A stretch of 64,000 nt of DNA from an uncultured Rhizobiaceae bacterium (GTDB taxonomy: Bacteria > Pseudomonadota > Alphaproteobacteria > Rhizobiales > Rhizobiaceae): NCBI GenBank assembly GCA_951813045.1, contig CATOTF010000002.1, positions 806,001 to 870,000 on the forward strand, written 5' to 3'. Of this stretch, positions 1 through 57,881 are shown in pieces. Each line of letters starts with the position of its first letter. Position 1 is the stretch's first letter. The position numbers and the translations under genes are program-made. The notes below the pieces were generated by a model. The model did no database searches, was not told where the DNA came from, and saw only the letters and a program-made list of their open reading frames with translations.

Positions 1-315
1 GTTCATTCATTCGAGGAACAGCTTGAGCGCATAACCGACCCCGGTAACGGTCTGGATGAAGAGAAACGTACCAGGGCGCTTTCGATGCTTGCCAAGGGTT
101 TGGAGCCATTGGTTGCGCTGGCCGAGAAATTACGCCTGCAACCAGGTAGCCGTATCTCGGAGCCGCAAGACAAAAAACACAAAATGCACAATATCCAGCG
201 GGACCAGGTAAACCATGAGGCTAGCGCCGAGCAAGACGCAAATCGAACTGCGGAACTCGACCGACAAATCGAGGCGCTCATTGAAGGCCTTGCACAAGAA
301 GGGGAATTTGAATGA
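1..315 (+). CDS. GTA small terminase subunit-like protein (5' end outside window)
   Basis: The reading frame is open from base 1 and stops at 313-315, so the true start lies before the window. The visible part (about 104 residues) is charged, with helical heptad-like stretches near its beginning and end. Its place directly before the large terminase, overlapping it by a few bases, fits the first gene of Rhodobacter-type GTA clusters, whose product is the DNA-recognition small terminase. I recognise it mainly by position. An internal ATG at 85 could start a 76-residue product, but the frame carries plausible coding sequence upstream of it. Confidence 0.55.
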   Translation, partial: VHSFEEQLERITDPGNGLDEEKRTRALSMLAKGLEPLVALAEKLRLQPGSRISEPQDKKHKMHNIQRDQVNHEASAEQDANRTAELDRQIEALIEGLAQEGEFE

Positions 316-1582: not shown

Positions 1583-1664
1583 AGCCTCTAAATAGTTATT
1601 GTAACGCGGTTCCGCTCTCAAATCTCACCGATTGATAGCGGAAGCTCATATTCAGGAAATAAGT

Positions 1665-2864
1665 ATGAAAAATTCATTCCGCTGGCTGCTGCCGGCGCGA
1701 TTCACTGTGAAAGATACTATTCCGCCAGAGCAGAAGGCTGGAGGTTTAACCAGTCTTTTCGCGATGTCCGGGGAGCGACACCTTCCATGGTCGAAGCCGG
1801 AATATTCCGTGATGGCTCGGAAGGGCTATATGTCCAATCCAATTGTTTATCGGTGTGTACGAATAATTTCTGAAACTGCCTCAGCCATTCCTAAACTGAT
1901 CTACGATGGAGCGGTTGAGCTGGACCAACATCCCATGCTGGACCTGCTTTCACGCCCCAATAACCGGCAGGCTGGTAACGAATTCTTCGAAACCCTGATT
2001 GGGCATCTTCTGGTGTCGGGTAACGCCTATATTGAACGACTCAATATTGACGCCATGCCCCGTGAACTCCATGCGCTTCGCCCGGACAGGGTCAAGGTAA
2101 AAAGCGACCGTCACGGTTGGCCGGAAACCTACGAGTACACATCAGGGCCCATAAAGAGCCAGCATAAGGTTTCTCCTTCGGGCGAATGTGATGTGCTTCA
2201 TTTAAGCCTGTTCCATCCACTGAATGACAATTCTGGCTTTCCTCCTCTGCAGGCAGCATTGATGGCACTCGATGTTCACAATGCCGCAAGCAAGTGGAAC
2301 AAGAGCCTGCTTGATAACTCGGCGCGCCCTTCTGGCGCATTGGTATATTCATCAACATCAGGTTCCAATCTGACGGAGGAACAATTCTCGCGGCTAAAGG
2401 GAGAGCTTGAAGACGGTTACACTGGCGCGTCTCGTGCGGGTCGCCCCATGTTGCTTGAGGGCGGGCTGGATTGGAAAGCTATGGGATACAGTCCCCGGGA
2501 CATGGATTTTGTCAATGCGCGCGCCGGTGCTGCACGGGACATTGCCTTAGCTTTTGGTGTGCCTCCCATGTTGTTGGGCATTCCCGGAGATAACACCTAC
2601 TCCAATTATCAGGAAGCGAACCGGGCATTCACCCGGCAAACGTTGCTGCCGCTGGTTCACCGAACGCTGGATTCCTTTACCCATTGGTTGAAACCAATAT
2701 TCGGTGATGGTTTGAGATTGGCAATTGATGAAGATCGTGTCGAAGGTCTGGGTTCTGAACGTGAGGCGGTTTGGCAGCGACTTTCAAACGCCGAGTTTTT
2801 GACGGAGGACGAAAAACGTGAGGCGGTTGGATATTCCCCTGTTGAAAGGGGGACCAGCACTTGA
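1665..2864 (+). CDS. GTA phage portal protein (gp3, HK97 family)
   Basis: Portal ring protein at the special vertex of the GTA head, through which DNA enters. At about 399 residues it has HK97-type portal features: the early segment NPIVYRCVRIISE, the RPNNRQ region, a central GNAYIE strand and a conserved helix with FGVPPMLLGI followed by DNTYSNYQEANR. The frame extends to a TTG at 1632, but ATG 1665 has an AGGAA about 7 bases upstream and is the better start. It sits between the terminase and a small membrane protein gene, whose TTG overlaps the portal stop. Confidence 0.9.
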   Translation: MKNSFRWLLPARFTVKDTIPPEQKAGGLTSLFAMSGERHLPWSKPEYSVMARKGYMSNPIVYRCVRIISETASAIPKLIYDGAVELDQHPMLDLLSRPNNRQAGNEFFETLIGHLLVSGNAYIERLNIDAMPRELHALRPDRVKVKSDRHGWPETYEYTSGPIKSQHKVSPSGECDVLHLSLFHPLNDNSGFPPLQAALMALDVHNAASKWNKSLLDNSARPSGALVYSSTSGSNLTEEQFSRLKGELEDGYTGASRAGRPMLLEGGLDWKAMGYSPRDMDFVNARAGAARDIALAFGVPPMLLGIPGDNTYSNYQEANRAFTRQTLLPLVHRTLDSFTHWLKPIFGDGLRLAIDEDRVEGLGSEREAVWQRLSNAEFLTEDEKREAVGYSPVERGTST

Positions 2865-3283
2865 TCGATCATATTTTGCGCGGCCTGGGAATAGGTAATT
2901 TTGGAGTGATATTCGGTGAGGCGACACCCGCTATCTGCCTGGCTAAACTACTCGGTGCCTTGGCAGGTTCTCTGATTTCGATTGCTTATATTTTACCCCG
3001 CGGGCGGCGTGAAGCCATGCTTCGGTTCACTGTTGGCGTAGTCACAGGGTTGGTCTTTGGGGGTACTGCAGGTGTGAAATTGGCAGACATTTTAGGCCTT
3101 TTAGAAAAGATTTCAGTTTTTGAAGTTTCGCTCATGGGTGCATCGTTTGCCAGCCTCAGTGCCTGGTGGGGGTTGGGTATCCTGCAACGGATATCTGAAA
3201 CCTGGTCTCCCCGGTTTTTTAGTACGGCAAAGACACACAACAACGTAAAAACCTCTGCGGGCGATAAGGAAAGCAGATCATGA
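2861..3283 (+). CDS. GTA-cluster small membrane protein between portal and protease
   Basis: A 140-residue protein with three or four hydrophobic segments (about residues 20-45, 55-75 and 90-110) and a polar C-terminal tail. It starts at TTG overlapping the portal stop (TTGA) and its own stop overlaps the protease start (ATGA), so it is translationally coupled on both sides. Rhodobacter-type GTA clusters of Hyphomicrobiales carry a small membrane protein of unknown function (DUF6107-like, by memory) at this position. Its role is not known to me; a head-assembly scaffold at the membrane would be speculation. Confidence 0.7.
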   Translation: MIDHILRGLGIGNFGVIFGEATPAICLAKLLGALAGSLISIAYILPRGRREAMLRFTVGVVTGLVFGGTAGVKLADILGLLEKISVFEVSLMGASFASLSAWWGLGILQRISETWSPRFFSTAKTHNNVKTSAGDKESRS

Positions 3284-3975
3284 AAAGACCGGATAATCTC
3301 CCAATCGAGCGTAAAAGAATACCTGTCCCCTTAGATAACGTCTCAAGCAATGGAACGTTCAGCGGATATGCAAGTCTGTTCGGGAAAGTCGACTTGGGCA
3401 AGGATAAGGTTGAACGGGGTGCATTCAGCCGGTCTTTAAAGACACGCGGAACATCGGGGGTGCGCATGTTGTTTCAACACGATCCAGCCGAACCCATTGG
3501 AACCTGGGAGGCCATATTTGAAGATGAAAAAGGCCTGTTCGTCCGCGGACAAATATTAGGTGGTTCATCAAAGAGTGCAGAAGTTTTGAACCTCATGCGC
3601 GAAGGGGCTATCGATGGTTTATCCATTGGCTTTCGAACTGAACGAAGCCGGACTGACCGGAAAACTGGTGTGCGATCAATTCTGGAGGCGGATTTATGGG
3701 AAATATCCGTTGTGACATTTCCGATGTTGCCGCAGGCAAGGGTGGAGCAGGTCAAGAACGTCGAAACTCAATCGAAAAAAGCGCTGCCATCGGTACGCGA
3801 ATTTGAACGCTGGCTCACGCGGGATGCTGGGTTGACGCGAAACGAAGCCAAAATCGTCATCGGTAAAGGCTTCCAACACCTGACCAGCAGACGGGATGCT
3901 GCGGTCTTAAACGGGGGGCAACTGGCGCGAAAACTACGTCGTGCGGCTCTCGAATTTACCTCACATCTCAACTGA
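3280..3975 (+). CDS. GTA prohead protease (gp4, HK97 family)
   Basis: Serine protease that matures the capsid by removing its N-terminal scaffold. The 231-residue sequence has the family pattern: FSGYASLFGKVD at the start, then RGAFSRSL, a histidine in MLFQHDPAEPIG and a DGLSIGF segment with the catalytic serine, followed by the WEISVVTFPM strand. The start codon overlaps the preceding stop by four bases. About the last 60 residues are a basic tail reaching the capsid gene, which begins 13 bases after the stop. Confidence 0.9.
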   Translation: MKRPDNLPIERKRIPVPLDNVSSNGTFSGYASLFGKVDLGKDKVERGAFSRSLKTRGTSGVRMLFQHDPAEPIGTWEAIFEDEKGLFVRGQILGGSSKSAEVLNLMREGAIDGLSIGFRTERSRTDRKTGVRSILEADLWEISVVTFPMLPQARVEQVKNVETQSKKALPSVREFERWLTRDAGLTRNEAKIVIGKGFQHLTSRRDAAVLNGGQLARKLRRAALEFTSHLN

Positions 3976-3988
3976 AAAGAGACAAACT

Positions 3989-5242
3989 ATGACGCAAATT
4001 ACCAAAGCTGCTCCGGAGTCCAAAATGGGGCCTGGTGCAGACATTGCAGATGCATTCGATGATTTTATGCATGCATTTGAAAGCTTCAAACATGCCAATG
4101 ATGATCGGTTGGAACAAATTGAATCACGGATGGGTTCAGATGTGATCACTGAAGAAAAGATGCACCGCATTAACAGAGCCGTTGATGAACAAAAACGCCA
4201 TCTTGATAATCTGATCCTTAAACAGCAACGACCGGCACTCGACGGTAAGATCAGTTCGAGTCCAATGCGGTTGGAACACAAGGAAGGATTTGACGCATAC
4301 CTTCGTGGTGGACAGGAACATGGACTTCGAGCGCTCGAGGAAAAAGCGATGTCCATTGGTTCGGATCCGGATGTTGGGTATCTCGTTCCCGAAGAATTGT
4401 CGAAAGATATTGGCAAGCGCCTTTCTGTAATTTCTCCAATTCGTTCCTTGTCGACAGTTCGTCAGGTGTCTTCGTCGGTATTTAAGAAACCCTTTGCTGC
4501 AACTGGTCCGGCAGTGGGTTGGGTTGGTGAGACGGATGTTCGTCCAGAAACGGCTACCCCTTCACTTGCAGAACTGCAATTTCCCACTATGGAATTGTAT
4601 GCGATGCCCGCGGCCACTTCGACATTGCTGGAAGATGCGGCAATTGACCTGGAAGCATGGATGGCGGGAGAAGTCGAAACCGCATTTGCGGAGCAGGAAG
4701 GTGCTGCCTTCGTAAACGGTGACGGGGTCAATAAACCAAGCGGATTTTTATCAGCGCCGGTTGTCGACGAAGTCAGTTGGAGCTGGGGCAATCTTGGATA
4801 TGTCGCTACAGGTTCCGACGGAAGCCTTGCCGCATCAGATGGCTCTGATGTCTTGATCGATACAATTTACGCATTGAAGGCGGGCTACCGCCAGAATGCG
4901 AACTTTGTCATGAATCGCAAGTCACAGGCTGAACTGCGAAAGCTTAAAGATGCCGATGGAAATTATCTGTGGCAGGCGCCAGCAGGTGCCGGATTGTCAG
5001 CCAGCCTAATGGGTTTTCCAGTTGTCGAAGTGGAAGACATGCCGGACTTTGCTGTCGACTCCCTGTCGATAGCATTTGGTGACTTCGCCAGAGGCTATCT
5101 GGTTGTGGACAGGGTTGGCGTTCGGGTTCTGCGTGACCCTTATTCTGCAAAGCCCTATGTCCTCTTTTACACCACGAAGCGGGTTGGCGGCGGTGTTCAG
5201 GATTTCGATGCCATCAAGCTCGTGAAATTCGGTACAGCGTAG
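3989..5242 (+). CDS. GTA major capsid protein (gp5, HK97 fold)
   Basis: Main shell protein of the GTA particle. The first 90 or so residues are charged and helical, like the delta/scaffold domain that the prohead protease removes. The body carries HK97 capsid hallmarks: SDPDVGYLVPEE, GWVGETDVRPET, the AAIDLEAWMAGEV helix and AFVNGDGVNKPSGFL. The frame opens upstream to 3941 inside the protease gene, but ATG 3989 has AGAGAC upstream and gives 417 residues, normal for the family. Two strong hairpins follow the gene, separating the abundant capsid message from the connector genes. Confidence 0.92.
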   Translation: MTQITKAAPESKMGPGADIADAFDDFMHAFESFKHANDDRLEQIESRMGSDVITEEKMHRINRAVDEQKRHLDNLILKQQRPALDGKISSSPMRLEHKEGFDAYLRGGQEHGLRALEEKAMSIGSDPDVGYLVPEELSKDIGKRLSVISPIRSLSTVRQVSSSVFKKPFAATGPAVGWVGETDVRPETATPSLAELQFPTMELYAMPAATSTLLEDAAIDLEAWMAGEVETAFAEQEGAAFVNGDGVNKPSGFLSAPVVDEVSWSWGNLGYVATGSDGSLAASDGSDVLIDTIYALKAGYRQNANFVMNRKSQAELRKLKDADGNYLWQAPAGAGLSASLMGFPVVEVEDMPDFAVDSLSIAFGDFARGYLVVDRVGVRVLRDPYSAKPYVLFYTTKRVGGGVQDFDAIKLVKFGTA

Positions 5243-5372: not shown

Positions 5373-5942
5373 ATGACAATCGCCCTGATTACACCTCCGG
5401 CAAGTGAGCCGGTAACTCTGATTGATGTTAAAGCGCACCTCAGGATTGATCATGACCATGAAGATGCGTTGTTGCTGGAAACGATTAAAGCAGCGCGCCA
5501 ATATACGGAGTTGTCCTGCGGTCAAAAATTGATCACCCAGACATGGAGGCAATACGAAAGTGGGTTCTCAATTGATGGGGCAGTGGTTCTGAAATTGTCT
5601 CCGGTTCAAAATGTTCTTTCAGTTACGATGTTTGACCGTGATGGCAACCCGAGCGCTCTGCCTACGGAGGATTTTCAATTTCTCCGAGAAGACATTGGAA
5701 CGGTGTTGAAAGTCACCGGTGCGCTGAACTCTACCTTGGCCGACAACGGGTTGGAGATAGACGTCGTTGCGGGAATGGGAGATTTTGGTGTTGATGTCGC
5801 CGACACCCTTAAGCGAGCGATATTGCTTTTGGTTGCGCATTGGTACGAATTTCGCGGTGCTATCCCGCCGTCGCAGCAACCTGTTTCGGTTCCGCCCGGA
5901 TTTGACGCATTGATACAGCCCTACCGAAGGGTAAATCTATAA
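5373..5942 (+). CDS. GTA head-tail connector protein (gp6)
   Basis: Adaptor ring protein below the portal. The 189-residue protein resembles the phage gp6/phiE125 gp8-type connector family: an early IDVKAHLRIDHDHEDALLLETIKAARQ helix region, here ending in YTELSCGQ, then the LITQTW strand, and a C-terminal helix AILLLVAHWYEFRGA. It is the first gene after the capsid terminator and overlaps gp7 by one base. Confidence 0.82.
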   Translation: MTIALITPPASEPVTLIDVKAHLRIDHDHEDALLLETIKAARQYTELSCGQKLITQTWRQYESGFSIDGAVVLKLSPVQNVLSVTMFDRDGNPSALPTEDFQFLREDIGTVLKVTGALNSTLADNGLEIDVVAGMGDFGVDVADTLKRAILLLVAHWYEFRGAIPPSQQPVSVPPGFDALIQPYRRVNL

Positions 5943-6277
5943 TGGCGAAGGTCTCGTATGACCCGGGACAATTGCGCCATCGGCTGGAGTTGCAGAGTCT
6001 CACTGAAACTCCAGATGGCTGTGGTGGATTGATAACATCATGGAACCACATCGACCATGTTTGGGGACAGATAAAACCCAACAGACAGGTGCGACAGCTT
6101 CAGGGGCAACAAGTTACTGAATTATCGACCAATATAATCATCATACGATATCGTGAGGATGTCGCAAGTGGTTGGCGGCTGGTTTACGATGGTAGGATTT
6201 TCGAGATTCTCACACTAGCTGATTTGAACGAACGGACAGAATATCTCGAGTGTCATGCGCGTGAGGGCGGTCGATAA
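5942..6277 (+). CDS. GTA head closure/joining protein (gp7)
   Basis: A 111-residue small beta-rich protein of the phage head-tail joining family (stopper ring). It has the family opening DPGQLRHRLELQ, the GGLITSW turn and the final strand pattern RLVYDGRIFEILTLADLNERTEYLE. Its start overlaps the gp6 stop and its stop overlaps the next gene by one base each, so these genes are translated as a coupled set. Confidence 0.85.
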   Translation: MAKVSYDPGQLRHRLELQSLTETPDGCGGLITSWNHIDHVWGQIKPNRQVRQLQGQQVTELSTNIIIIRYREDVASGWRLVYDGRIFEILTLADLNERTEYLECHAREGGR

Positions 6278-6552
6278 TGCAGGTTCTCTCCCTAACTCTT
6301 GGAGATTTGAGTTCCGCGCTTCGGAAGCTCGATTTCAAATCGAAACTGATAAGTCAGGCGAACCGTGTTCTGGACGAAGTATCAGTCCAAGCTGAGTTCC
6401 GTGAACTGCCCATCAGCGCTGAAATTGCGGACGGAAGAAAAAATTCAGTAAATCTCAATATCCGGATTGATAGCCCCACGATTGGTTCCCAGCCAGATGC
6501 ACTGCAAGTCAAACTGTTGGATAGAATTGTTTCGAGGAGCTTAGAAAAATGA
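6277..6552 (+). CDS. GTA-cluster small protein of unknown function (between gp7 and gp8)
   Basis: A 91-residue protein that I cannot assign to a family. It has an N-terminal helical part (residues 1-40, with repeated Leu), then a polar segment, and ends with a short helix. It overlaps gp7 by one base and the tail terminator gene by four bases (ATGA), which argues that it is a real gene. The position would suit a neck protein such as an HK97 gp10-like product, but the length is short for that and the sequence gives no clear match. Confidence 0.6.
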   Translation: MQVLSLTLGDLSSALRKLDFKSKLISQANRVLDEVSVQAEFRELPISAEIADGRKNSVNLNIRIDSPTIGSQPDALQVKLLDRIVSRSLEK

Positions 6553-6956
6553 CCTTATCCAGTCAGGAATTGCAGTCATCAATTTTTAAAGTTCTTGCGG
6601 CTGACACAACTCTTGTTGAAAATTTGGGCGGATTGAAACTCTTTGAACGAATGCCGGAGCGCGCCCAATATCCTTATGTCGTATTGGGGAGGCAAACGAT
6701 CTCTGACTGGAGTACGTCGACGGAAGACGGGGAAGCAATTGTCTTTTTTGTTCATGTTTGGTCGCGCGCAAAAAATTATGACCAGTCCAGCATGCTGCAG
6801 GACCGCATAAAATATTTATTGACGGAAACACTCTCCGATCTGCCAACCCAAAAACTTATCCACCTGAGGTTCCAGTTGGCTGAAACTCGCCGTGACCGTT
6901 TAAACGGCCATCTTCACTCGATCATGCGTTTTCGGGCGGTGATTGAACCAAATTAG
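6549..6956 (+). CDS. GTA tail terminator protein (gp8, DUF3168 family)
   Basis: Ring protein that ends tail-tube polymerisation and joins the tail to the head. The 135-residue sequence shows the DUF3168 pattern: N-terminal helix with LQSSIFKVLAAD, then YPYVVLGRQT, a strand with VHVWSR, and the helix before LSDLP. Start overlaps the preceding stop (ATGA). A 24-base gap follows before the tail tube gene, which has its own ribosome-binding site (GCAAAGG). Confidence 0.85.
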   Translation: MTLSSQELQSSIFKVLAADTTLVENLGGLKLFERMPERAQYPYVVLGRQTISDWSTSTEDGEAIVFFVHVWSRAKNYDQSSMLQDRIKYLLTETLSDLPTQKLIHLRFQLAETRRDRLNGHLHSIMRFRAVIEPN

Positions 6957-6980
6957 CAGAATTAGCAAAGGGCAAAGTTC

Positions 6981-7397
6981 ATGTCAGCTCAAAAGGGTAA
7001 GGATCTTTTATTAAAGGTCGAGCCAATCATCGGTGGTGGATTTACCACTGTAGCGGGAATGCGGTCACGCCGAATTGCATTCGGTGCCGAAACCGTTGAC
7101 GTAACCGATTTTGAAAGTGCCGGGCGTTGGCGCCATCTACTTTCTGGCGCAGGTGTGCAGAGGGCGTCGATTTCTGGAAGCGGGATATTTAAAGATGCCG
7201 CGTCGGATGAACAAATTAGAAACCTGTTCTTTCAGACTCAAATTGTGAGCTGGCAACTTGTCATCCCGGATTTTGGGATGCTGACCGGACCATTCCAGAT
7301 TACTGCGCTTGAGTATGGTGGAGATCATACGGGTGAGGTGACTTTCGAGATATCGTTGGAGTCTGCGGGATCAATATCATTTGCGGCGTCTGTCTGA
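6981..7397 (+). CDS. GTA major tail tube protein (gp9, TP901-1 type)
   Basis: Main subunit of the tail tube. At 138 residues it has the start SAQKGKDLLLKVE, the motif AGMRSRRIAFGAETVDVTDFES near residue 27 onward and a C-terminal strand pair ending EVTFEISLESAG, typical of GTA gp9 and phi13/TP901-1 tail proteins. It overlaps the following gene by one base. Confidence 0.88.
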   Translation: MSAQKGKDLLLKVEPIIGGGFTTVAGMRSRRIAFGAETVDVTDFESAGRWRHLLSGAGVQRASISGSGIFKDAASDEQIRNLFFQTQIVSWQLVIPDFGMLTGPFQITALEYGGDHTGEVTFEISLESAGSISFAASV

Positions 7398-7711
7398 TGG
7401 TAAACAAGTATCGTGGAGAGGTGGCGGCGAACCTCGATGGTAAAACGTGGACACTTTGCCTGACTCTTGGTGCATTGGCTGAGTTGGAAGCTGCTTTTGA
7501 GGTGGATGATCTCACAGCATTAATCGCGCGGTTCTCCTCTGGTAATTTATCGGCAAGAGATATGTTACGCGTTATTGGTGCGGGCCTTAGAGGCGGTGGT
7601 TATACGGTGAATGATGCAGATGTGCGTGAAATGCAGGCGGAAGGTGGTGCCGTTGGTTACGCAAAGATCGTCAGCCAACTGCTGACTGCGACATTTGGAA
7701 AACAAGAATGA
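7397..7711 (+). CDS. GTA tail assembly protein (gp10)
   Basis: A 104-residue protein of the GTA gp10 family, counterpart of the tail-tube/tape-measure chaperone set. It begins with a basic segment (NKYRGEVAANLDGK) and a strand TWTLCLTLGALAELEAAFEV, the usual family signature, followed by helices. The next gene begins four bases before its stop (ATGA), the arrangement seen for the paired tail chaperones. Confidence 0.8.
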   Translation: MVNKYRGEVAANLDGKTWTLCLTLGALAELEAAFEVDDLTALIARFSSGNLSARDMLRVIGAGLRGGGYTVNDADVREMQAEGGAVGYAKIVSQLLTATFGKQE

Positions 7712-7926
7712 AGAACGAAACCAACTCATTTCCCTGGCAATGGGTGATGGAATTTGGATTCGGTGTGTTGAAACTATCGCCTGCGCAATTTTGGTCGCTT
7801 TCGGTTCATGAATTGAACGCGGCCGTCAAATCGCACTATCCCGCGGTGAATGGCCAGTTGGAGCGAACCGTTTTCCAAAACTTGATGACGAAGCATCCCG
7901 ATCAACCAACAAAAGGTGAATTATGA
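7708..7926 (+). CDS. GTA tail assembly chaperone (gp10.1, rcc01693-like)
   Basis: A 72-residue protein with the motif PWQWVMEFGFGVLKLSPAQFW, which marks the small tail assembly chaperone of alphaproteobacterial GTAs. It is overlapped at both ends: with gp10 upstream and with the tape measure gene downstream (ATGA at 7923). By analogy with phage chaperones it should bind the tape measure before tail assembly. Confidence 0.82.
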   Translation: MKNETNSFPWQWVMEFGFGVLKLSPAQFWSLSVHELNAAVKSHYPAVNGQLERTVFQNLMTKHPDQPTKGEL

Positions 7927-8489
7927 CTGACCCTCAAGACGGCATCCGTATCCCGATACGAGCAGATCTTTCTGAATTCGACGGGGCGTTAAAGGATTTG
8001 CAAACTCAGTCTCAAAAATTTGGGTCGGTATTTGCTGGAACCATAAAGGGCGCAATTGCCAGTGGACGGTCGTTTGACGACACCTTAAAAACACTGGTCC
8101 TTCGCCTGTCCAATCTGGCGCTTTCAGCGGGATTGAAACCATTGGAGACAGCAGCGTCAGGTTTGCTGAACAATCTTGTGTCAGGAATTGGTCAAAGCTT
8201 TGGCGGAGGGAGCATTGTCCCATTTGAAAAAGGTGGAGTTGTGTCATCGCCGACATTTTTTGGTGCTGGAGGACAACTCGGTGTCATGGGAGAGGCAGGT
8301 GCAGAAGCAATATTGCCCCTGTCGCGTGGGAGTGACGGACGGTTAGGCGTACGTAGTCAATCCAGTTCCAACCCAATCAACGTTACCTTTAACGTATCAA
8401 CCCCCGATGCCCAGAGCTTTCGACGTTCAGAAGCTCAATTGTCGTCAATGTTAGCACGGGCAGTAGGCCGAGGTCGACGAGCACTGTGA
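7923..8489 (+). CDS. GTA short tail tape measure protein (gp11)
   Basis: A 188-residue tape measure protein. GTA tails are short, so this length is close to normal for the family and not a truncation. The N-terminal part is helical and polar; the middle has the Gly-rich FEKGGVVSSPTFFGAGGQLGVMGEAGAEAILPL region that the family shares. It sets tail length and is expelled during DNA ejection in related systems. Confidence 0.83.
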   Translation: MTDPQDGIRIPIRADLSEFDGALKDLQTQSQKFGSVFAGTIKGAIASGRSFDDTLKTLVLRLSNLALSAGLKPLETAASGLLNNLVSGIGQSFGGGSIVPFEKGGVVSSPTFFGAGGQLGVMGEAGAEAILPLSRGSDGRLGVRSQSSSNPINVTFNVSTPDAQSFRRSEAQLSSMLARAVGRGRRAL

Positions 8490-8520: not shown

Positions 8521-9162
8521 ATGTTAGAGATGTCTTCCTTTCACGACGTACGATTCCCCACTGATATCTCAATCTCTTCAAGCGGCGGGCCGGTCCGGAG
8601 TACCGAGATTGTTACATTGGGGTCCGGTCGCGAACAACGTAACCAAAGATGGTCGCAATCGAGGCGCAGGTTTGACGCTGGATTTGGTGCGAAAGATCTG
8701 GTGAGATTACAAGATATAGTCGCCTTTTATGAAGCGCGTCGGGGGCCGCTTTATGCCTTTCGCTTCAAAGATCCGCTCGACTTCAAGTCGTGTTCTCCGG
8801 TGGCCGAGACTTCTGGAGAAGATCAAACAATTGGGACCGGTGATGGGAGTCAAACAGAATTCCAATTAATCAAGTCATACGGTGAAGAGGAACCATTTGT
8901 GCGGGCTATAACGAAACCTGTTGAAGGAACCGTATCTATCTCGATAAATGGTACGGCAGCAACTCTTGGAACAGATTTTGAGCTGAACTATTTAACCGGA
9001 TTGATGACAATCTTAACACCGCCAAACAGTGGTGATCTGATTACCGCTGGGTTTGAATTTGATGTTCCGGTTCGCTTTGAGGCTGACGAACTGAATATAA
9101 ACCTCGCTGCATTCACTGCCGGTGATATCCCAAATATTCCACTGATTGAGGTTAATGTATGA
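8521..9162 (+). CDS. GTA distal tail protein (gp12, DUF2460/TIGR02217)
   Basis: Distal tail/baseplate protein at the tail tip. At 213 residues it shows the family opening FHDVRFPTDISISSSGGP, then RRFDAGFGAKD, and FYEARRGPLYAFRFKDPLDF, which is characteristic. The start may be ATG 8521 or ATG 8530; AAGGG precedes the first. The stop overlaps gp13 by four bases. Confidence 0.9.
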   Translation: MLEMSSFHDVRFPTDISISSSGGPVRSTEIVTLGSGREQRNQRWSQSRRRFDAGFGAKDLVRLQDIVAFYEARRGPLYAFRFKDPLDFKSCSPVAETSGEDQTIGTGDGSQTEFQLIKSYGEEEPFVRAITKPVEGTVSISINGTAATLGTDFELNYLTGLMTILTPPNSGDLITAGFEFDVPVRFEADELNINLAAFTAGDIPNIPLIEVNV

Positions 9163-10075: not shown

Positions 10076-10543
10076 ATGAAACGAGAAGAAAATGCCATGT
10101 TGGTCGTGCAATCGGCCCGCAAATGGCTGGGTACGCCCTATCTACACCAAGCTTCCTTGATCGGCGTGGGTTGTGATTGCCTAGGTTTAATTCGCGGTGT
10201 TTGGCGAGAGGTGGAAGGACAAGAGCCTGAATCAGCACCACCCTATTCCTCCGTGTGGGCAGAAGTTGGTAAAAACGAAAGCTTGCTTAATGCGGGATAT
10301 AATCATTTTCAGAATATTGAGCGGGCGGATTTAGCACCCGGTGACGTGCTTATTTTCCGATTGCGTGCCTCTGCACTGGCTAAACATGCAGGAATTTTAA
10401 CCCGCTCTGACAGGTTTATTCACGCCTATGATGGGGCCAGCGTTGTGGAATCATCCCTGGATAAATTCTGGCGCACAAGAATCGCAGGTATATTTCGGTT
10501 TCCTTGCGTCTTGCAAAATTCTTACTCAGGAGAGCAAGACTAA
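10076..10543 (+). CDS. GTA cell-wall peptidase (gp14, NlpC/P60 family)
   Basis: Cysteine peptidase carried at the tail tip, thought to open peptidoglycan during DNA delivery. The 155-residue protein has the catalytic Cys in GVGCDCLGLIRGVWRE, the His in LAKHAGIL and a following polar residue, in the order expected for NlpC/P60. TAAGG lies 5 bases before ATG 10076. Its last base overlaps the gp15 start codon (TAATG). Confidence 0.9.
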   Translation: MKREENAMLVVQSARKWLGTPYLHQASLIGVGCDCLGLIRGVWREVEGQEPESAPPYSSVWAEVGKNESLLNAGYNHFQNIERADLAPGDVLIFRLRASALAKHAGILTRSDRFIHAYDGASVVESSLDKFWRTRIAGIFRFPCVLQNSYSGEQD

Positions 10544-12855
10544 TGGCGACCGTAGTTCTTCAGGCGGTTGGTTCCGCCGTTGGCAGTTTTGTTGGAGGTC
10601 CGATTGGTGCTGTAGTCGGGCGAACACTTGGCGCGATTGGTGGCTCCTACCTAGACAACCAGGTACTTGGTCCGGGAGACCAATCGACGACCGGACCGCG
10701 CCTGGAAAACACCCAGCTTCTCTCCTCGCGCGAGGGATCTGTAATTCCTAAGGTTTTTGGACGGACAAGAGTTTCCGGCGAAGTTATCTGGGCAACTAAT
10801 TTTCGTGAGGTTCAGCAGGTAGAAGCCCAATCGCAAGGGGGCAAGGGTGGTGCACCAAAATCGACCGTGCGAACTTATTCCTATTTTGGGAGTTTTGCGG
10901 TTGGGTTATGTGAAGGCGAAATCGCAACAACCGGGCGTATCTGGGCTGATGGTAAACTTCTTGATCAAACGGAATTTACAATACGGACTCACACCGGCTC
11001 CGCTGAACAACAACCTGATAGTTTAATTGAGGCAAAGCAGGGAGCAGGTAATGCTCCAGCTTATCGGGGGCTTGCCTATATTGTTTTTGAAGAATTACCG
11101 CTAGATGAATTCGGTAACCGTATTCCTCAAATCTCAGTAGAAATCGTTAGGCCGATTGGCGCCCTGGAAAATTACGTTCACGGGGTGAATGTGATTCCAG
11201 GGGCGACGGAATTCGGGTATGATACCCAGCCGGTTATTGAAAAAACAAACGGGCTTGAGACCGCTCGATTAAACGTCCATCAAACCATAGCTGAAACAGA
11301 CTTTATTGCTTCGCTTGATGAACTGAAGGCAACCTGCCCGAATTTAAAGCAAATTGCTCTGGTTGTAGCTTGGTTTGGGGAAGATTTACGAGTTGGTGAA
11401 TGCACTGTTGCGCCCAGAGTAGAAGTTCCTAACAGGGTTTTGATTGCAGGTGAAGAATGGAGCGTTGCAGGACTGAACAGGCAATCAGCGCGGTTGGTCA
11501 CTTACCGCGAGGGAAGTCCTGCGTATGGTGGAACAGCATCGGATAGCTCAGTGTTACGCGCAATAGCGGCAATCAAATCAGCAGGATTGAAGGTTTGCCT
11601 CAATCCGTTCCTTTTGATGGATGTCGAGCAAGGCAATCAACTACCTGATCCTTATGGGGAGGATCAACAAGGCGCATATCCATGGCGTGGCAGGCTTACG
11701 TGTTATCCGGCTCAAGGTCAGCCGATGACGGTTGATAAAACCAGTTTAGCCGTGGATCAGATTGCTTCTTTTGTTGGAATGGTTTCCACGGCAGATATCG
11801 CAACCGGCGTAAACCTGACTGAATGGTCGTATCGGCGGATGATTCTCCATTACGCAAACCTCGCAACTGCGGCGGGTGGCGTAGATATGTTCCTCATTGG
11901 CTCAGAAATGGTTGGCCTCACCAGACTTCGGGATACCGATGATAATTTCCCTTTTGTAGATGCATTATTGGAGTTGGCTACCGATGTAAGAGGAATATTG
12001 GGAACTGACTGCATAATTACCTATGGAGCAGATTGGACAGAGTATTTTGGTTATCACCCACAGGACGGTTCGCAGGACGTGTATTTTAACCTGGATCAAC
12101 TCTGGTCCAGTAGCGCCATTTCGGCGGTTGGTATCGATAATTACATGCCACTTAGTGACTGGCGGCAGGACTATCGCGCAGATGACAAGGGGCGAAATAG
12201 CTCAGACATAGAAATGCTCGCTGAGCAAGTTGCTGGGGGAGAGGGGTTTGATTGGTATTACCAATCAAACGCTGATCGCGAGCAGGGGATACGGACCCCC
12301 ATTACCGATGGACAGGGAAGTCCTTGGGTATATCGCTATAAAGATCTGATAGGTTGGTGGGGAAATGAACATTTTGATCGCCGGGCGGGACTAGAGTTAT
12401 CGCTATCATCGGACTGGACCCCTGAAAGTAAGCCAATCATTTTTACTGAATTTGGTTGTGCATCGGTCCATAATGGTACCAATCAGCCCAACGTATTCAT
12501 TGACCGTAAGAGCTCTCAAAGCGCTCTCCCCTATTTTTCTAATGGTGGGCGAGATGATAAGAATCTCAATGCATATATTGATACCCATCAAGCTCATTGG
12601 GACGAAAGCCATCCACGATTTCAACAGCAAAATAATCCTGTTTCAACTGCATATAATGGTCGAATGGTGGACTTTGATAAGAGTCAACTTTGGGCGTGGG
12701 ACGCCAGGCCATATCCGTATTTCCCAGGGTTGGAAGACGTGTGGACCGATGGAGAAAATTGGAAGACAGGCCACTGGCTCAACGGCCGTCTTGGCGTAGC
12801 AAGGGTTGGTGACTGGACTTGTCCCGTATTAATTCCGCATCCTGTTCTCGTTTAA
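10543..12855 (+). CDS. GTA host-contact protein gp15, N-terminal part (interrupted by IS copy 1)
   Basis: First part of the very large GTA tail-tip protein (megatron). ATG 10543 has AGGAG upstream and abuts gp14. Native coding sequence runs to GAC 12811-12813, giving 757 residues. The first segment is Gly/Val-rich and membrane-like (SAVGSFVGGPIGAVVG), and residues about 410-750 look like the GTA TIM-barrel domain, with strings such as DMFLIGSEMVGLTRLRD and PIIFTEFGC. After 12813 the frame enters the IS and adds 14 foreign residues before a stop. The protein as encoded lacks its C-terminal region, so normal gp15 function is unlikely. Confidence 0.88.
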   Translation: MATVVLQAVGSAVGSFVGGPIGAVVGRTLGAIGGSYLDNQVLGPGDQSTTGPRLENTQLLSSREGSVIPKVFGRTRVSGEVIWATNFREVQQVEAQSQGGKGGAPKSTVRTYSYFGSFAVGLCEGEIATTGRIWADGKLLDQTEFTIRTHTGSAEQQPDSLIEAKQGAGNAPAYRGLAYIVFEELPLDEFGNRIPQISVEIVRPIGALENYVHGVNVIPGATEFGYDTQPVIEKTNGLETARLNVHQTIAETDFIASLDELKATCPNLKQIALVVAWFGEDLRVGECTVAPRVEVPNRVLIAGEEWSVAGLNRQSARLVTYREGSPAYGGTASDSSVLRAIAAIKSAGLKVCLNPFLLMDVEQGNQLPDPYGEDQQGAYPWRGRLTCYPAQGQPMTVDKTSLAVDQIASFVGMVSTADIATGVNLTEWSYRRMILHYANLATAAGGVDMFLIGSEMVGLTRLRDTDDNFPFVDALLELATDVRGILGTDCIITYGADWTEYFGYHPQDGSQDVYFNLDQLWSSSAISAVGIDNYMPLSDWRQDYRADDKGRNSSDIEMLAEQVAGGEGFDWYYQSNADREQGIRTPITDGQGSPWVYRYKDLIGWWGNEHFDRRAGLELSLSSDWTPESKPIIFTEFGCASVHNGTNQPNVFIDRKSSQSALPYFSNGGRDDKNLNAYIDTHQAHWDESHPRFQQQNNPVSTAYNGRMVDFDKSQLWAWDARPYPYFPGLEDVWTDGENWKTGHWLNGRLGVARVGDWTCPVLIPHPVLV

Positions 12856-13709
12856 CTCGTTTTTCGTTCAAATTTGATGGGCGACATTCCTCCTATTGCT
12901 GAGTGTCTTCTGCGGCTGTTGTAAAAGCCGTTGATGTATTGGAACAGGGCGTCGGTTGCTTGCTGTCGTGTTTGCCATGTGCCGCGCCAGATGAGTTCGG
13001 CTTTGAGTGTTTTGAAGAACGTCTCGACCACGGCGTTGTCCCAGCAATTGCCTTTTCGGCTCATGGACACTTTAAACTTCAGTTCACGCATTCGTTTTTG
13101 ATAATCATGAGAGCAGTATTGACTGCCACGGTCCGTATGATGAATGCAGCCCGGCGGTGGGTTTCGAAGGGCCAAAGCCCGGTTGAGAGCCTGCAATGCC
13201 AAGTCTTTCTTCAACCGGTTGCTGACAGCCCAACCCACCACACGGCGTGAATGTAGATCGATCATCACTGCCAGATACAGCCAGCCCTCACGGGTCCAGA
13301 TGTAGCTGATGTCACCTGCCCATTTCTGGTTGGGTTTATCCGCTTGGAAGTTCCGCCCCAGCAAGTTAGGCGCAATGTTGAAGCGGTGATTGCTATCGGT
13401 CGTAGCTTTGTATTTGCGTGTTCTGACCACTCGAATGCCGTTGTCGCGCATCAGGCGGCCAACACGGCGGTGACCAATAGCAAGGCCGGCTTCCTTCAAC
13501 TCCTGCGTCATTCTCGGGCGACCATAACTGCCAAGGCTCAAGTGATGCTGTTCACGGATGTGCGCCAGAACCACCATGTCATCGCGCTGCCGTTGACTAA
13601 CAGGGCGGTTGTGCCAGGCACGATAACCACGCGATGTAACATTCAGAATATGGCAAAGCCGATCCACCGGAACGTGTTTCCTGTGTTCTTCGACAAACGC
13701 AAATCTCAC
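12852..13709 (-). CDS. IS3-family transposase OrfB (copy 1)
   Basis: Catalytic half of the transposase, 285 residues, with an rve-type DDE core: Asp in WAGDISYIW, Asp in HHTDRGSQY and Glu in NAVVETFFKTLKAEL. An HTH_21-like segment with YRAWHNRP precedes the core. The GTG start overlaps the orfA stop (GTGA). OrfB is in the -1 frame relative to orfA, and that frame stays open back into orfA past an ATTAAAG stretch, so an OrfAB fusion by -1 frameshifting is likely, as usual in IS3 elements. Confidence 0.95.
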   Translation of the reverse strand: MRFAFVEEHRKHVPVDRLCHILNVTSRGYRAWHNRPVSQRQRDDMVVLAHIREQHHLSLGSYGRPRMTQELKEAGLAIGHRRVGRLMRDNGIRVVRTRKYKATTDSNHRFNIAPNLLGRNFQADKPNQKWAGDISYIWTREGWLYLAVMIDLHSRRVVGWAVSNRLKKDLALQALNRALALRNPPPGCIHHTDRGSQYCSHDYQKRMRELKFKVSMSRKGNCWDNAVVETFFKTLKAELIWRGTWQTRQQATDALFQYINGFYNSRRRHSAIGGMSPIKFERKTS

Positions 13710-13981
13710 TTGCTTTGACCCGCGAAGAACACTGTTGCCTTCTTTAATATCTCCCTCTCCTCCGTGAGGAGACGAACCTCTCTGCGAAGCCGCTCATTCT
13801 CTTTGGCCAGATCAATATCAACCGATGGTGGAAGGTCATCAGGCCGGGATTGTTGTATCCATTTCGATAACGTCGAAAAGCCGACCCCCAAATCTGATGC
13901 CACTTGTTTCCGGGTAAGTCCGCTGGTCAGCGCAATACGCACCGCTTCACGCTTGAATTCGTCTGTGTGGCCTCGTGCCAT
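13706..13981 (-). CDS. IS3-family transposase OrfA (copy 1)
   Basis: A 91-residue DNA-binding half of the transposase. It has an HTH (about residues 10-45, with TRKQVASDLGVGFSTLSKW) and a C-terminal leucine-zipper-like coiled coil (ENERLRREVRLLTEEREIL). It overlaps orfB and is probably also made as the N-terminus of an OrfAB frameshift product. Confidence 0.95.
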   Translation of the reverse strand: MARGHTDEFKREAVRIALTSGLTRKQVASDLGVGFSTLSKWIQQSRPDDLPPSVDIDLAKENERLRREVRLLTEEREILKKATVFFAGQSK

Positions 13982-14032
13982 AATAGTTCTCCTTGATGGG
14001 ATTAATCCAATTCAAGGACACGGAACTAAACC

Positions 14033-15658
14033 GTGACAAGTCCAGACCTAATTGGTGAAATATTGTGCTCGGCAGGAGTTGATCAGTTTGATGTTAGTCA
14101 AGTTTCCGGAGTCTTGGACGGTTATATTATCGCTGATCTTTCCTCTGGGAGGCAGTCAATCGAAGCATTGCTCAACATTTTTCAGATTGATGTATTTGAA
14201 GATGCTGGGACAATAATATTCAGGTCACCTGGTGTGGATCCAGTGAAGTCGCTTTCGAGGGACGATTTGGATCATTCTTTGGCTGAACCTGTAATCGCCA
14301 TTTCTCAAGAGCAGGAATCTGATGTCCCGGTTTCAGTTCACATTCGTCATTTAGATCCAGAAATTCAGTTTCAGGAAACAGAAACGGAAGCCGCGCGGGT
14401 GGACCGTTCCGGTATACGTAAACAAATCATTTCATTACCCGCAGTCAGTGATCGTGGGCGAATAGAAGGCCTTGCAGAAGATTGGATCCGCAATCGATGG
14501 TCTCAACGGGAAACCATTTCGCTTGGTCTCTCACGGCAAAATGCAGCGCTTAACGTTGGGGATTTAATTTCACTCGAGGAGGATTCCACCTCAAAGCTAT
14601 GGAAAATATCGAGGGTGGACATTGCAAGCGGTATATCGGTCCTTGCCAATTCTTACGAACAAGGTGAGCTGCGTTCGTCATTGTCTGATATTTCACCTCA
14701 ACGTTTCCAAAGCCCGATTAATTCCGGCTCGCCACAAATTACATTTTTGGACCTACCGTTGTTAAATGTTGGTGGCTTCCCGGGGGGCAATACCGTTGCA
14801 GCAGTTACGACTCCCTGGCCGGGCGAAATGGCGCTTTATTCGTCTGCCTCCGATACCGGATACACTTATCGTCAAAGTTTGGAAAACGCTGCGTTCGTGG
14901 GTGAATTGCTGGAAGAGTTACCGGGCAGCTCAATTACAAGTCGATGGAGTAGCGAACACAATCCGAAAATTACATTGCTAAATGGTATTCTTTCCTCCGT
15001 AGAAGAAATCCACGTATTAAACGGCGCCAACGGGTTAGCTCTTCAAAAACCTAATGGGCGCTGGGAAATTTTACAGTTTGCTGAAGCCCAATTAACTGGG
15101 AACCAAACCTGGTCTCTACAAAATTTGCTTCGTGGTCAGGCTGGCACAGAGGCCGAAGCTGCTACAAATTCTATCGCTGGTTCCAGAGTTGTGATTTTAA
15201 ACAGCGCTGTAAGCCCATTGAATCATACGACGTCGGAACGAGGTCTGTTGTTGAACTGGCTCGCGGGACCGGCAGGCAAAACGTTGGGCGGCCCTGCATT
15301 TGCAGTGGAACCTTTTGCTCCAGGGTATCGGTCGCTTGAGCCACTTTCACCTGTTCATTTGGACGTGAATTTGGGAGAGAATCAATCAATCGCGGCCAAT
15401 TGGATCCGCCGTGATCGTTCAGATGCCGATGACTGGCGGGTTCACGAAATTCAGATGAGCGAGGATAGCGAAATCTATGCCGTAAAAATATTGCATGAAA
15501 ATGAATTGGTGTACGCGTCACAAACCACACAACCATCAATAACGATCCCTTCAACTTCACTAACCGATCTCACAGGGGAAGCGGTGAAATTTAGTGTCGC
15601 GCAAGTGAGTGCGGCAGTTGGAGAAGGGCTGGCAGCAACTCAACTATTACAACTTTAG
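14033..15658 (+). CDS. GTA host-contact protein gp15, C-terminal part (interrupted by IS copy 1)
   Basis: Second part of gp15. Native sequence resumes after the target duplication at 14048 (CTA ATT GGT) in the same frame as the first part; joining GAC 12813 to 14048 gives one uninterrupted frame of 1,293 residues, close to the normal gp15 length. The open frame as it stands begins at a GTG (14033) inside the IS terminal repeat. The region resembles the phage tail_3-like and C-terminal rcc01698-type domains of GTA gp15 (LAEDWIRNRWSQRETISLGL, LQNLLRGQAGTEAEA). I see no other damage, which suggests that the insertion is recent. Confidence 0.88.
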   Translation: MTSPDLIGEILCSAGVDQFDVSQVSGVLDGYIIADLSSGRQSIEALLNIFQIDVFEDAGTIIFRSPGVDPVKSLSRDDLDHSLAEPVIAISQEQESDVPVSVHIRHLDPEIQFQETETEAARVDRSGIRKQIISLPAVSDRGRIEGLAEDWIRNRWSQRETISLGLSRQNAALNVGDLISLEEDSTSKLWKISRVDIASGISVLANSYEQGELRSSLSDISPQRFQSPINSGSPQITFLDLPLLNVGGFPGGNTVAAVTTPWPGEMALYSSASDTGYTYRQSLENAAFVGELLEELPGSSITSRWSSEHNPKITLLNGILSSVEEIHVLNGANGLALQKPNGRWEILQFAEAQLTGNQTWSLQNLLRGQAGTEAEAATNSIAGSRVVILNSAVSPLNHTTSERGLLLNWLAGPAGKTLGGPAFAVEPFAPGYRSLEPLSPVHLDVNLGENQSIAANWIRRDRSDADDWRVHEIQMSEDSEIYAVKILHENELVYASQTTQPSITIPSTSLTDLTGEAVKFSVAQVSAAVGEGLAATQLLQL

Positions 15659-15676: not shown

Positions 15677-15883
15677 ATGCCTGATTACAAACCTTGGTAT
15701 ACTTCTAAAACGATATGGGGATCTATTGTTGCGATTGCTGCAGTTGTTGCTTCCTTTTTGGGAGTCTGTATCAGCGAGCAATCTCAAGCGGAAATCGTGG
15801 AAGTAACATTACAGATTGTCGGTGTGGCCGGTTCACTTTTTGCGGTTCTTGGTCGGCTGAACGCCACTAGCGTGATTGAATGA
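15677..15883 (+). CDS. Holin-like small membrane protein
   Basis: A 68-residue protein with two hydrophobic segments (about residues 14-30 and 42-58) separated by a short polar turn and ending in GRLNATSVIE. This pattern (KPWY.SKTIWG at the start, GR..ATS.I at the end) is one I recall from small holin-like proteins in alphaproteobacterial prophages. AGAAGGAAC lies 8 bases before ATG. It starts 18 bases after gp15 and its stop overlaps the next gene (ATGA). Pore formation is inferred, not shown. Confidence 0.65.
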   Translation: MPDYKPWYTSKTIWGSIVAIAAVVASFLGVCISEQSQAEIVEVTLQIVGVAGSLFAVLGRLNATSVIE

Positions 15884-56650: not shown

Positions 56651-56688
56651 TGGACTTGTCCCGTATTAATTCCGCATCCTGTTCTCGT

Positions 56689-57546
56689 TTAACTCGTTTT
56701 TCGTTCAAATTTGATGGGCGACATTCCTCCTATTGCTGAGTGTCTTCTGCGGCTGTTGTAAAAGCCGTTGATGTATTGGAACAGGGCGTCGGTTGCTTGC
56801 TGTCGTGTTTGCCATGTGCCGCGCCAGATGAGTTCGGCTTTGAGTGTTTTGAAGAACGTCTCGACCACGGCGTTGTCCCAGCAATTGCCTTTTCGGCTCA
56901 TGGACACTTTAAACTTCAGTTCACGCATTCGTTTTTGATAATCATGAGAGCAGTATTGACTGCCACGGTCCGTATGATGAATGCAGCCCGGCGGTGGGTT
57001 TCGAAGGGCCAAAGCCCGGTTGAGAGCCTGCAATGCCAAGTCTTTCTTCAACCGGTTGCTGACAGCCCAACCCACCACACGGCGTGAATGTAGATCGATC
57101 ATCACTGCCAGATACAGCCAGCCCTCACGGGTCCAGATGTAGCTGATGTCACCTGCCCATTTCTGGTTGGGTTTATCCGCTTGGAAGTTCCGCCCCAGCA
57201 AGTTAGGCGCAATGTTGAAGCGGTGATTGCTATCGGTCGTAGCTTTGTATTTGCGTGTTCTGACCACTCGAATGCCGTTGTCGCGCATCAGGCGGCCAAC
57301 ACGGCGGTGACCAATAGCAAGGCCGGCTTCCTTCAACTCCTGCGTCATTCTCGGGCGACCATAACTGCCAAGGCTCAAGTGATGCTGTTCACGGATGTGC
57401 GCCAGAACCACCATGTCATCGCGCTGCCGTTGACTAACAGGGCGGTTGTGCCAGGCACGATAACCACGCGATGTAACATTCAGAATATGGCAAAGCCGAT
57501 CCACCGGAACGTGTTTCCTGTGTTCTTCGACAAACGCAAATCTCAC
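56689..57546 (-). CDS. IS3-family transposase OrfB (copy 2)
   Basis: A 285-residue protein identical to OrfB of copy 1 at 12852-13709, with the same D, D, E catalytic motifs (WAGDISYIW, HHTDRGSQY, NAVVETFFK). The GTG start overlaps orfA, and production as an OrfAB fusion is likely. Confidence 0.95.
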   Translation of the reverse strand: MRFAFVEEHRKHVPVDRLCHILNVTSRGYRAWHNRPVSQRQRDDMVVLAHIREQHHLSLGSYGRPRMTQELKEAGLAIGHRRVGRLMRDNGIRVVRTRKYKATTDSNHRFNIAPNLLGRNFQADKPNQKWAGDISYIWTREGWLYLAVMIDLHSRRVVGWAVSNRLKKDLALQALNRALALRNPPPGCIHHTDRGSQYCSHDYQKRMRELKFKVSMSRKGNCWDNAVVETFFKTLKAELIWRGTWQTRQQATDALFQYINGFYNSRRRHSAIGGMSPIKFERKTS

Positions 57547-57818
57547 TTGCTTTGACCCGCGAAGAACACTGTTGCCTTCTTTAATATCTCCCTCTCCTCC
57601 GTGAGGAGACGAACCTCTCTGCGAAGCCGCTCATTCTCTTTGGCCAGATCAATATCAACCGATGGTGGAAGGTCATCAGGCCGGGATTGTTGTATCCATT
57701 TCGATAACGTCGAAAAGCCGACCCCCAAATCTGATGCCACTTGTTTCCGGGTAAGTCCGCTGGTCAGCGCAATACGCACCGCTTCACGCTTGAATTCGTC
57801 TGTGTGGCCTCGTGCCAT
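57543..57818 (-). CDS. IS3-family transposase OrfA (copy 2)
   Basis: A 91-residue protein identical to OrfA of copy 1, with an HTH and a C-terminal coiled coil. Both copies therefore encode an apparently intact transposase. Confidence 0.95.
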   Translation of the reverse strand: MARGHTDEFKREAVRIALTSGLTRKQVASDLGVGFSTLSKWIQQSRPDDLPPSVDIDLAKENERLRREVRLLTEEREILKKATVFFAGQSK

Positions 57819-57881
57819 AATAGTTCTCCTTGATGGGATTAATCCAATTCAAGGACACGGAACCAAACCGTGACAAGTCCA

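What the first reader, a model, noticed from the sequence alone, without database searches (positions are those of the whole stretch)
10543..15658. GTA gp15 is split by an IS whose exact removal restores a 1,293-residue protein
The native codon GAC at 12811-12813 is repeated at 14045-14047 on the other side of the IS. Removing the element and one GAC joins 12813 to 14048 in frame, with no stop, for 757 + 536 residues. That is close to a normal GTA gp15. The other GTA genes visible look intact, so the cluster was lost as a working transfer agent by a single and probably recent event.
Basis: seen in the sequence. Interest (0 to 1): 0.8.

Follow-up and report, generated by a model that had tools for sequence, protein, structure and literature searches.

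The report
Jumping gene breaks gene-transfer agent gene
A recently multiplied jumping gene has landed inside the tail-tip gene of a bacterium's virus-like gene-transfer particle, probably disabling a machine whose other genes still look intact; this is an ordinary kind of damage, cleanly preserved.

Summary
A 1,231-bp IS3-family element (12814-14044, transposase on the minus strand) sits in the GTA megatron gene (gp15, 10543-15658), flanked by the duplication GAC (12811-12813, 14045-14047). The 757 and 536 native residues match the megatron profile at positions 1-760 and 766-1297 of 1299 and the solved RcGTA protein up to 761 and from 771. In 184 of 199 related loci the halves meet here in one frame; the other 15 lack one or both halves. 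This genome shows no other gp15. Of 17 other cluster genes looked at, 16 match congeners, and gp15 shows no decay. 47 copies of the IS have both exact ends and 30 of 32 inspected are identical, so the insertion is young. About 0.14-0.18 hits in the cluster are expected by chance. The cut falls in the domain that fixes the baseplate to the tail, so transfer is probably lost; that is inferred. Two polypeptides that still assemble are not excluded but unlikely. It is an ordinary IS disruption of a known GTA.

The parts
10543..12813 (+). GTA gp15 (megatron), N-terminal 757 native codons: iris/penetration, adhesin-like and peripheral (GTA_TIM) domains and the start of the central domain
   Evidence: NF048004 positions 1-760, 1151.5 bits; PF13547 GTA_TIM; RcGTA 6tba residues 1-761; domain names from PMC7296036
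12811..12813 (.). target-site duplication, left copy (GAC)
12814..14044 (-). IS3-family insertion sequence, 1,231 bp, transposase antisense to gp15
   Evidence: ends and length; many identical copies in the own genome
12852..13709 (-). IS3 transposase OrfB, rve integrase core (285 aa)
   Evidence: NF033516 357.9 bits, PF00665
13706..13981 (-). IS3 transposase OrfA, HTH_Tnp_1 (91 aa)
   Evidence: PF01527; NF033516 positions 1-83, below its cut-off alone
14045..14047 (.). target-site duplication, right copy (GAC)
14048..15658 (+). GTA gp15, C-terminal 536 native codons: most of the central domain and the fibre-binding domain
   Evidence: NF048004 positions 766-1297; PF13550, PF23666; RcGTA residues 771-1298
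14033..15658 (+). ORF that could make the C-terminal part from a GTG inside the IS (541 aa)
   Evidence: translation not shown
1..303 (+). candidate GTA small terminase, begins 195 bases left of the window (G000:C2:805806)
   Evidence: similar ORF in 9 sibling loci, 26-36% identity
215..1582 (+). GTA large terminase
   Evidence: 64-70% identity to congeners
1632..2864 (+). GTA portal
3280..3975 (+). GTA prohead protease (named from position, recalled)
   Evidence: congener matches; in 2 of 9 sibling loci only up to residue 161
3941..5242 (+). GTA major capsid protein
   Evidence: TIGR01554 398 bits; 69-79% identity to congeners
5373..7711 (+). GTA head-tail connector and tail-tube genes (orfg6 to orfg10; names by position, recalled)
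   Evidence: congener matches for all except a 91-aa ORF at 6277-6552
7708..7926 (+). GTA gp10.1, tail assembly chaperone
   Evidence: PF09550; congener matches
7923..8489 (+). GTA tape measure protein, 188 aa
   Evidence: NF058675 150.5 bits, below its cut-off of 220, but nearly full length against congeners
8521..9162 (+). GTA gp12 distal tail protein
   Evidence: TIGR02217
9159..10046 (+). GTA gp13 baseplate hub
   Evidence: TIGR02218
10076..10543 (+). GTA gp14 NlpC/P60 peptidase
   Evidence: TIGR02219

Best explanation
An IS3-family element, of which this genome holds at least 47 copies with both ends exact, inserted by ordinary transposition after codon 757 of the only GTA megatron gene found and duplicated 3 bp (GAC). 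Shown: the insertion, its duplication, the continuous state in relatives, the intact rest of the cluster as far as compared, the lack of decay. Inferred: the iris/pore, adhesin-like and TIM-barrel parts are now separated from the central domain that binds the distal tail protein and from the fibre-binding domain, so the baseplate cannot work and gene transfer is lost. The event is young: the IS copies are nearly all identical and neither half evolves faster than in congeners.
For: IS boundaries and GAC duplication; transposase families; 55 left and 52 right ends, 47 pairs at exactly 1,231 bp; 40 of 40 scored long copies print as 100% identical, 74 candidates in all; 30 of 32 inspected copies have 0 mismatches, though these were chosen by exact ends. 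Megatron profile split 1-760 / 766-1297; RcGTA 1-761 / 771-1298. Junction continuous and in frame in 184 of 199 loci, the other 15 incomplete; among 14 congeners, 8 have one full-length gp15. Two megatron matches in the own genome, the two halves. Terminal branch of this genome over the mean of 8 siblings: gp15N 0.98, gp15C 1.11, 11 other genes 0.62-1.29. Deviations at columns invariant in the other 8: gp15N 10/247 and gp15C 6/57, within the siblings' own range. RcGTA megatron: central domain residues 745-984, which takes part in attaching the baseplate to the distal tail protein (PMC7296036, passages).
Against: No functional test. Both halves remain open, and a GTG inside the IS could start the C-terminal part, so some two-piece function cannot be excluded. 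No conspecific strain was found, so the site without IS was seen only in relatives of about 56-63% identity or less (N half) and 33-44% or less (C half). The decay tests compare distant siblings and would miss a few substitutions.
Confidence: 0.9

Rival explanations
1. The two pieces are both made (770 aa, and 541 aa from the GTG at 14033) and assemble into a working split megatron.
For: Both pieces are open. The cut lies between PF13547 (to residue 728) and PF13550 (from about residue 789). No decay in either half.
Against: No natural split at this point in the 184 of 199 loci that could be judged. The cut lies about 24 residues inside the RcGTA central domain. No sigma-70-like promoter in 12700-14200, though shuffles give only 1.4 on average, so this is weak. 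Lack of decay is expected from youth alone.
Confidence: 0.04
2. The insertion is selectively favoured: turning off a costly or lytic GTA benefits the carrier, and the gp15 hit is one of repeated GTA inactivations.
For: G002, G009 and G014 of the same genus show neither gp12 nor gp15. In G008 (same genus) the gp15 sequence from residue 623 on is preceded by 144 bases that are not gp15. In G040 (same order) gp15 is split by roughly 15 kb that carry an integrase gene.
Against: With 47-60 insertion places in 4.84 Mb, 0.14-0.18 hits in the cluster are expected (P 0.13-0.17), so no selection is needed. G014 is a 0.9-Mb genome, G009 is 92% complete, and G008 is a draft in about 430 contigs, so the absences and the break may have other causes.
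Confidence: 0.1
3. Assembly or culture artefact: the repeated IS was placed in gp15 wrongly, or only some cells carry it.
For: The IS is multicopy and longer than short reads; the genome's sequencing method is unknown.
Against: The GAC duplication fits a real simple insertion, and the flanks are gp15 continuing in the right frame. The assembly has only 2 contigs, which suggests long reads (inference).
Confidence: 0.03

Closest known systems
RcGTA (Rhodobacter capsulatus gene transfer agent), megatron Rcc01698, PDB 6tba/6teh
   Same: both halves match the megatron over nearly all of its length; the gene order from terminase to gp15 is that of RcGTA (order of RcGTA recalled)
   Different: gp15 interrupted by an IS between residues that map to about 768 and 769 of Rcc01698
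IS3 family insertion sequences
   Same: OrfA with HTH_Tnp_1, OrfB with rve core, 3-4 bp target duplication; TG...CA ends (as recalled for the family)
   Different: nothing of note except the high copy number; subgroup not assigned
IS-rich alphaproteobacterial genomes, such as Octadecabacter
   Same: IS expansion with many interrupted genes (PMC3646047, passages)
   Different: that paper reports GTAs as conserved in both strains; here the GTA itself is hit

Membership tests
RcGTA-like gene transfer agent cluster | ordered head-tail genes from terminase to gp15 | tested here: met
RcGTA-like gene transfer agent cluster | intact megatron gene | tested here: not met
   split by IS; only the two halves found in the genome
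RcGTA-like gene transfer agent cluster | particles that transfer random host DNA | not testable with these tools
   needs culture
RcGTA-like gene transfer agent cluster | accessory GTA genes outside the main cluster (regulators, head spikes, tail fibre) | not tested
   -
GTA_megatron NF048004 | whole-protein score over 800 bits | tested here: inconclusive
   N half alone 1151.5 bits (passes), C half alone 389.5 (below cut-off)
IS3 family | two-ORF transposase with HTH OrfA and rve/DDE OrfB | tested here: met
IS3 family | short target-site duplication | tested here: met
   GAC here; 17 of 32 inspected copies with 3-4 bp, 15 without
IS3 family | programmed frameshift making OrfAB | not tested
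   -

The most novel reading that the evidence does not exclude
The IS has turned the megatron into a two-piece protein whose C-terminal part starts from an IS-supplied GTG, and the GTA still assembles particles, perhaps with altered delivery.
Probability: 0.04. Interest if true: 0.6.

Novelty: new member of a known kind. Interest (0 to 1): 0.25.

Why it matters
It is a clean snapshot of the first step of GTA loss: one young lesion in a cluster that otherwise looks functional. It gives a natural reference for how fast the remaining genes decay once transfer stops, and a caution for surveys that score GTA presence by capsid or terminase genes.

Tried and rejected
Looked for a second intact gp15 in the own genome: none among the matches. 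Looked for the IS in sibling GTA regions: no hit in the 11 loci tried. Looked for a conspecific: the best matches in the named genome and viral collections have 54% identity (both tools warn that records very near the window may be left out), so strain-level sites without the IS were not available. Looked for the IS in named plasmids to learn the organism: 3 records, 60-80% identity, none covering 80% of the query. A count of split megatrons over the order (178 of 249 genomes with a match, 164 over the cut-off) could not be finished because the list of matches is cut. Literature: the listings (titles and starts of abstracts; some returned 0 papers) show no report of an IS in a GTA gp15; only open-licence papers are held, and only passages of PMC7296036, PMC3646047, PMC9836097 and PMC9632790 were seen, so this is weak. 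An adaptive-loss reading was considered and not preferred, because the hit is unsurprising for the IS load. Exchange of IS flanks by recombination (15 of 32 copies without a duplication) was noticed but not resolved.

Full report
What is there. The window starts inside an RcGTA-like gene cluster. Reading the sequence and a script check give an insertion at 12814-14044, 1,231 bp, with ends TGGACTTGTC and GACAAGTCCA and the 3-bp duplication GAC at 12811-12813 and 14045-14047. Its two minus-strand ORFs match the IS3 family (OrfA HTH_Tnp_1; OrfB rve core, NF033516 357.9 bits). The left gp15 piece runs from ATG 10543 through codon 757; the right piece is 536 codons, 14048-15658 with the stop. As they stand, the ORFs end at 12855 (13 IS codons appended) and can begin at GTG 14033 inside the IS.

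Is it one gene split? Searched apart, the pieces match the NCBIfam GTA megatron model at 1-760 and 766-1297 of 1299 and the solved RcGTA megatron at residues 1-761 and 771-1298 of 1304. Counting on from the ends of these alignments, the cut falls between residues that map to about 768 and 769 (inference). I ran both pieces against 199 loci (20, 80 named genome loci, 80 IMG/VR loci, 19 fetched by place; some genomes occur more than once). In 184 the two pieces abut in one frame with length differences of -15 to +12 bases; 12 loci had only the N piece, 2 only the C piece and 1 neither. At least one of the 184 (L235, G040) is split elsewhere in the gene. Of 14 other genomes of the genus, 8 have one full-length gp15, 2 (G007, G008) have pieces, and 4 (G002, G009, G010, G014) have no match. 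G007's piece reaches the end of its contig. In G008 the N piece stops at a contig end at residue 439, and on another contig the sequence from residue 623 on is preceded by 144 bases that are not gp15 in any frame and match nothing else in the pool: another break, or an assembly fault. G010 keeps the cluster up to gp14, where its contig ends. G002, G009 and G014 also lack gp12. The own genome shows no further megatron.

The IS. Exact left ends occur 55 times and exact right ends 52 times in the own genome, with 0 for the reversed control patterns. Paired at exactly 1,231 bp they give 47 copies, with 8 left and 5 right ends unpaired, 60 places in all. The 40 long copies scored all print as 100% identical (74 candidates, 40 scored). 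Of 32 distinct copies with readable flanks, 30 have 0 mismatches, one 2 and one 11; this set was chosen by exact ends and so leans towards young copies. 14 have a 3-bp and 3 a 4-bp duplication, 15 have neither. In the genus the nearest full-length element is 85% identical, in G002; end pieces of up to 139 bases reach 94% there. The element has therefore multiplied lately in this lineage. With 47 to 60 insertion places, 0.14 to 0.18 hits in the 14.6-kb cluster are expected by chance: the hit is unsurprising.

Is the rest intact? Of 15 other cluster genes compared, all are open and 14 match sibling loci, most over nearly the whole length; the protease matches only up to about residue 160 in 2 of 9 sibling loci. 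A 91-aa ORF at 6277-6552 matches none, so it says nothing. gp10.1 is PF09550 and matches siblings. A candidate small terminase lies across the window's left edge, with 26-36% identity to ORFs in 9 sibling loci. That makes 17 other genes looked at, 16 with matches. Accessory GTA genes elsewhere in the genome (regulators, head spikes, tail fibre) were not examined.

Has gp15 decayed? On a fixed tree from 13 gene blocks (4 of the 17 query pieces were left out; three inner nodes have support of 50, 72 and 81), the terminal branch of this genome relative to the mean of 8 siblings is 0.98 for gp15N and 1.11 for gp15C; the 11 other genes range from 0.62 to 1.29. At columns invariant in the other eight, this genome deviates at 10 of 247 (gp15N) and 6 of 57 (gp15C); siblings range over 0.01-0.08 and 0.02-0.19. 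There is no sign of relaxed constraint, which fits a recent insertion. The siblings are distant (56-63% identity in gp15N, 33-44% in gp15C), so these tests would miss a few substitutions.

Mechanism. In RcGTA the megatron has iris/penetration (1-46), adhesin-like (47-229), peripheral (230-744), central (745-984) and fibre-binding (985-1304) domains; the central domain helps to fix the baseplate to the distal tail protein, and the iris helices close the tail channel and may form the outer-membrane pore (PMC7296036, passages). The cut, about 24 residues into the central domain, leaves iris, adhesin-like and peripheral parts on one chain and tail attachment and fibre binding on another. Loss of a working baseplate is the likeliest result, but this is inference. 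That IS3 elements move by copy-out/paste-in and rarely excise precisely is recalled, from no call.

Context. A relative of the same order, G040, has gp15 split at about residue 570 by roughly 15 kb that carries genes with phage integrase, resolvase and tape-measure domains: an independent mobile-element hit in the same gene. I could not count such cases over the order because the match list is cut. Organism: unnamed; the best named gp15 relative is a Hyphomicrobiales metagenome assembly (54%).

Verdict. A real, simple, young IS disruption of a known gene in a known kind of cluster.

Noticed in passing
window 56651-57881: A second copy of the same IS, 1 mismatch, without target duplication (AAG / TCG flanks), followed by an ORF with a hydrolase-like motif (read by eye); possibly a product of IS-mediated rearrangement.
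   Followed up: partly
G000, IS copies in L004-L007, L121, L123, L127, L133, L134, L138-L140, L145, L146, L149: 15 of 32 inspected IS copies lack a 3-4 bp duplication, which suggests recombination between copies; L139 has a reversed fragment of the IS left end directly beside the IS.
   Followed up: partly
G000:C2:1340460-1344369: Two identical IS copies in opposite orientation about 1.4 kb apart, a possible composite transposon.
   Followed up: no
L235 (G040:C3:351700-371650): GTA gp15 split at about residue 570 by roughly 15 kb with phage integrase, resolvase and tape-measure domains; a 14-bp direct repeat lies some 60-75 bases off the two homology ends. Perhaps an integrative element that uses gp15 as its site.
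   Followed up: partly
L117 (G008:C349), bases 7210-7353: 144 bases before gp15 residue 623 are not gp15 in any frame; gp15 of this congener may be broken too, or the draft contig is faulty.
   Followed up: partly
window 15677-15883: A 68-aa small ORF, probably membrane-spanning by eye, right after gp15: matches 55 of 199 loci, in all 55 within 22-150 bases after the gp15 match, and has no Pfam match; possibly a holin or an unrecognised GTA gene.
   Followed up: partly
genus of the window: G002, G009, G014: Neither gp12 nor gp15 found, so the GTA may have been lost more than once in this genus.
   Followed up: partly
L238 (G018), L239 (G022): Open frames of about 840 aa that match only the profile from about 643 on: a shorter megatron form without most of the N-terminal part.
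   Followed up: no
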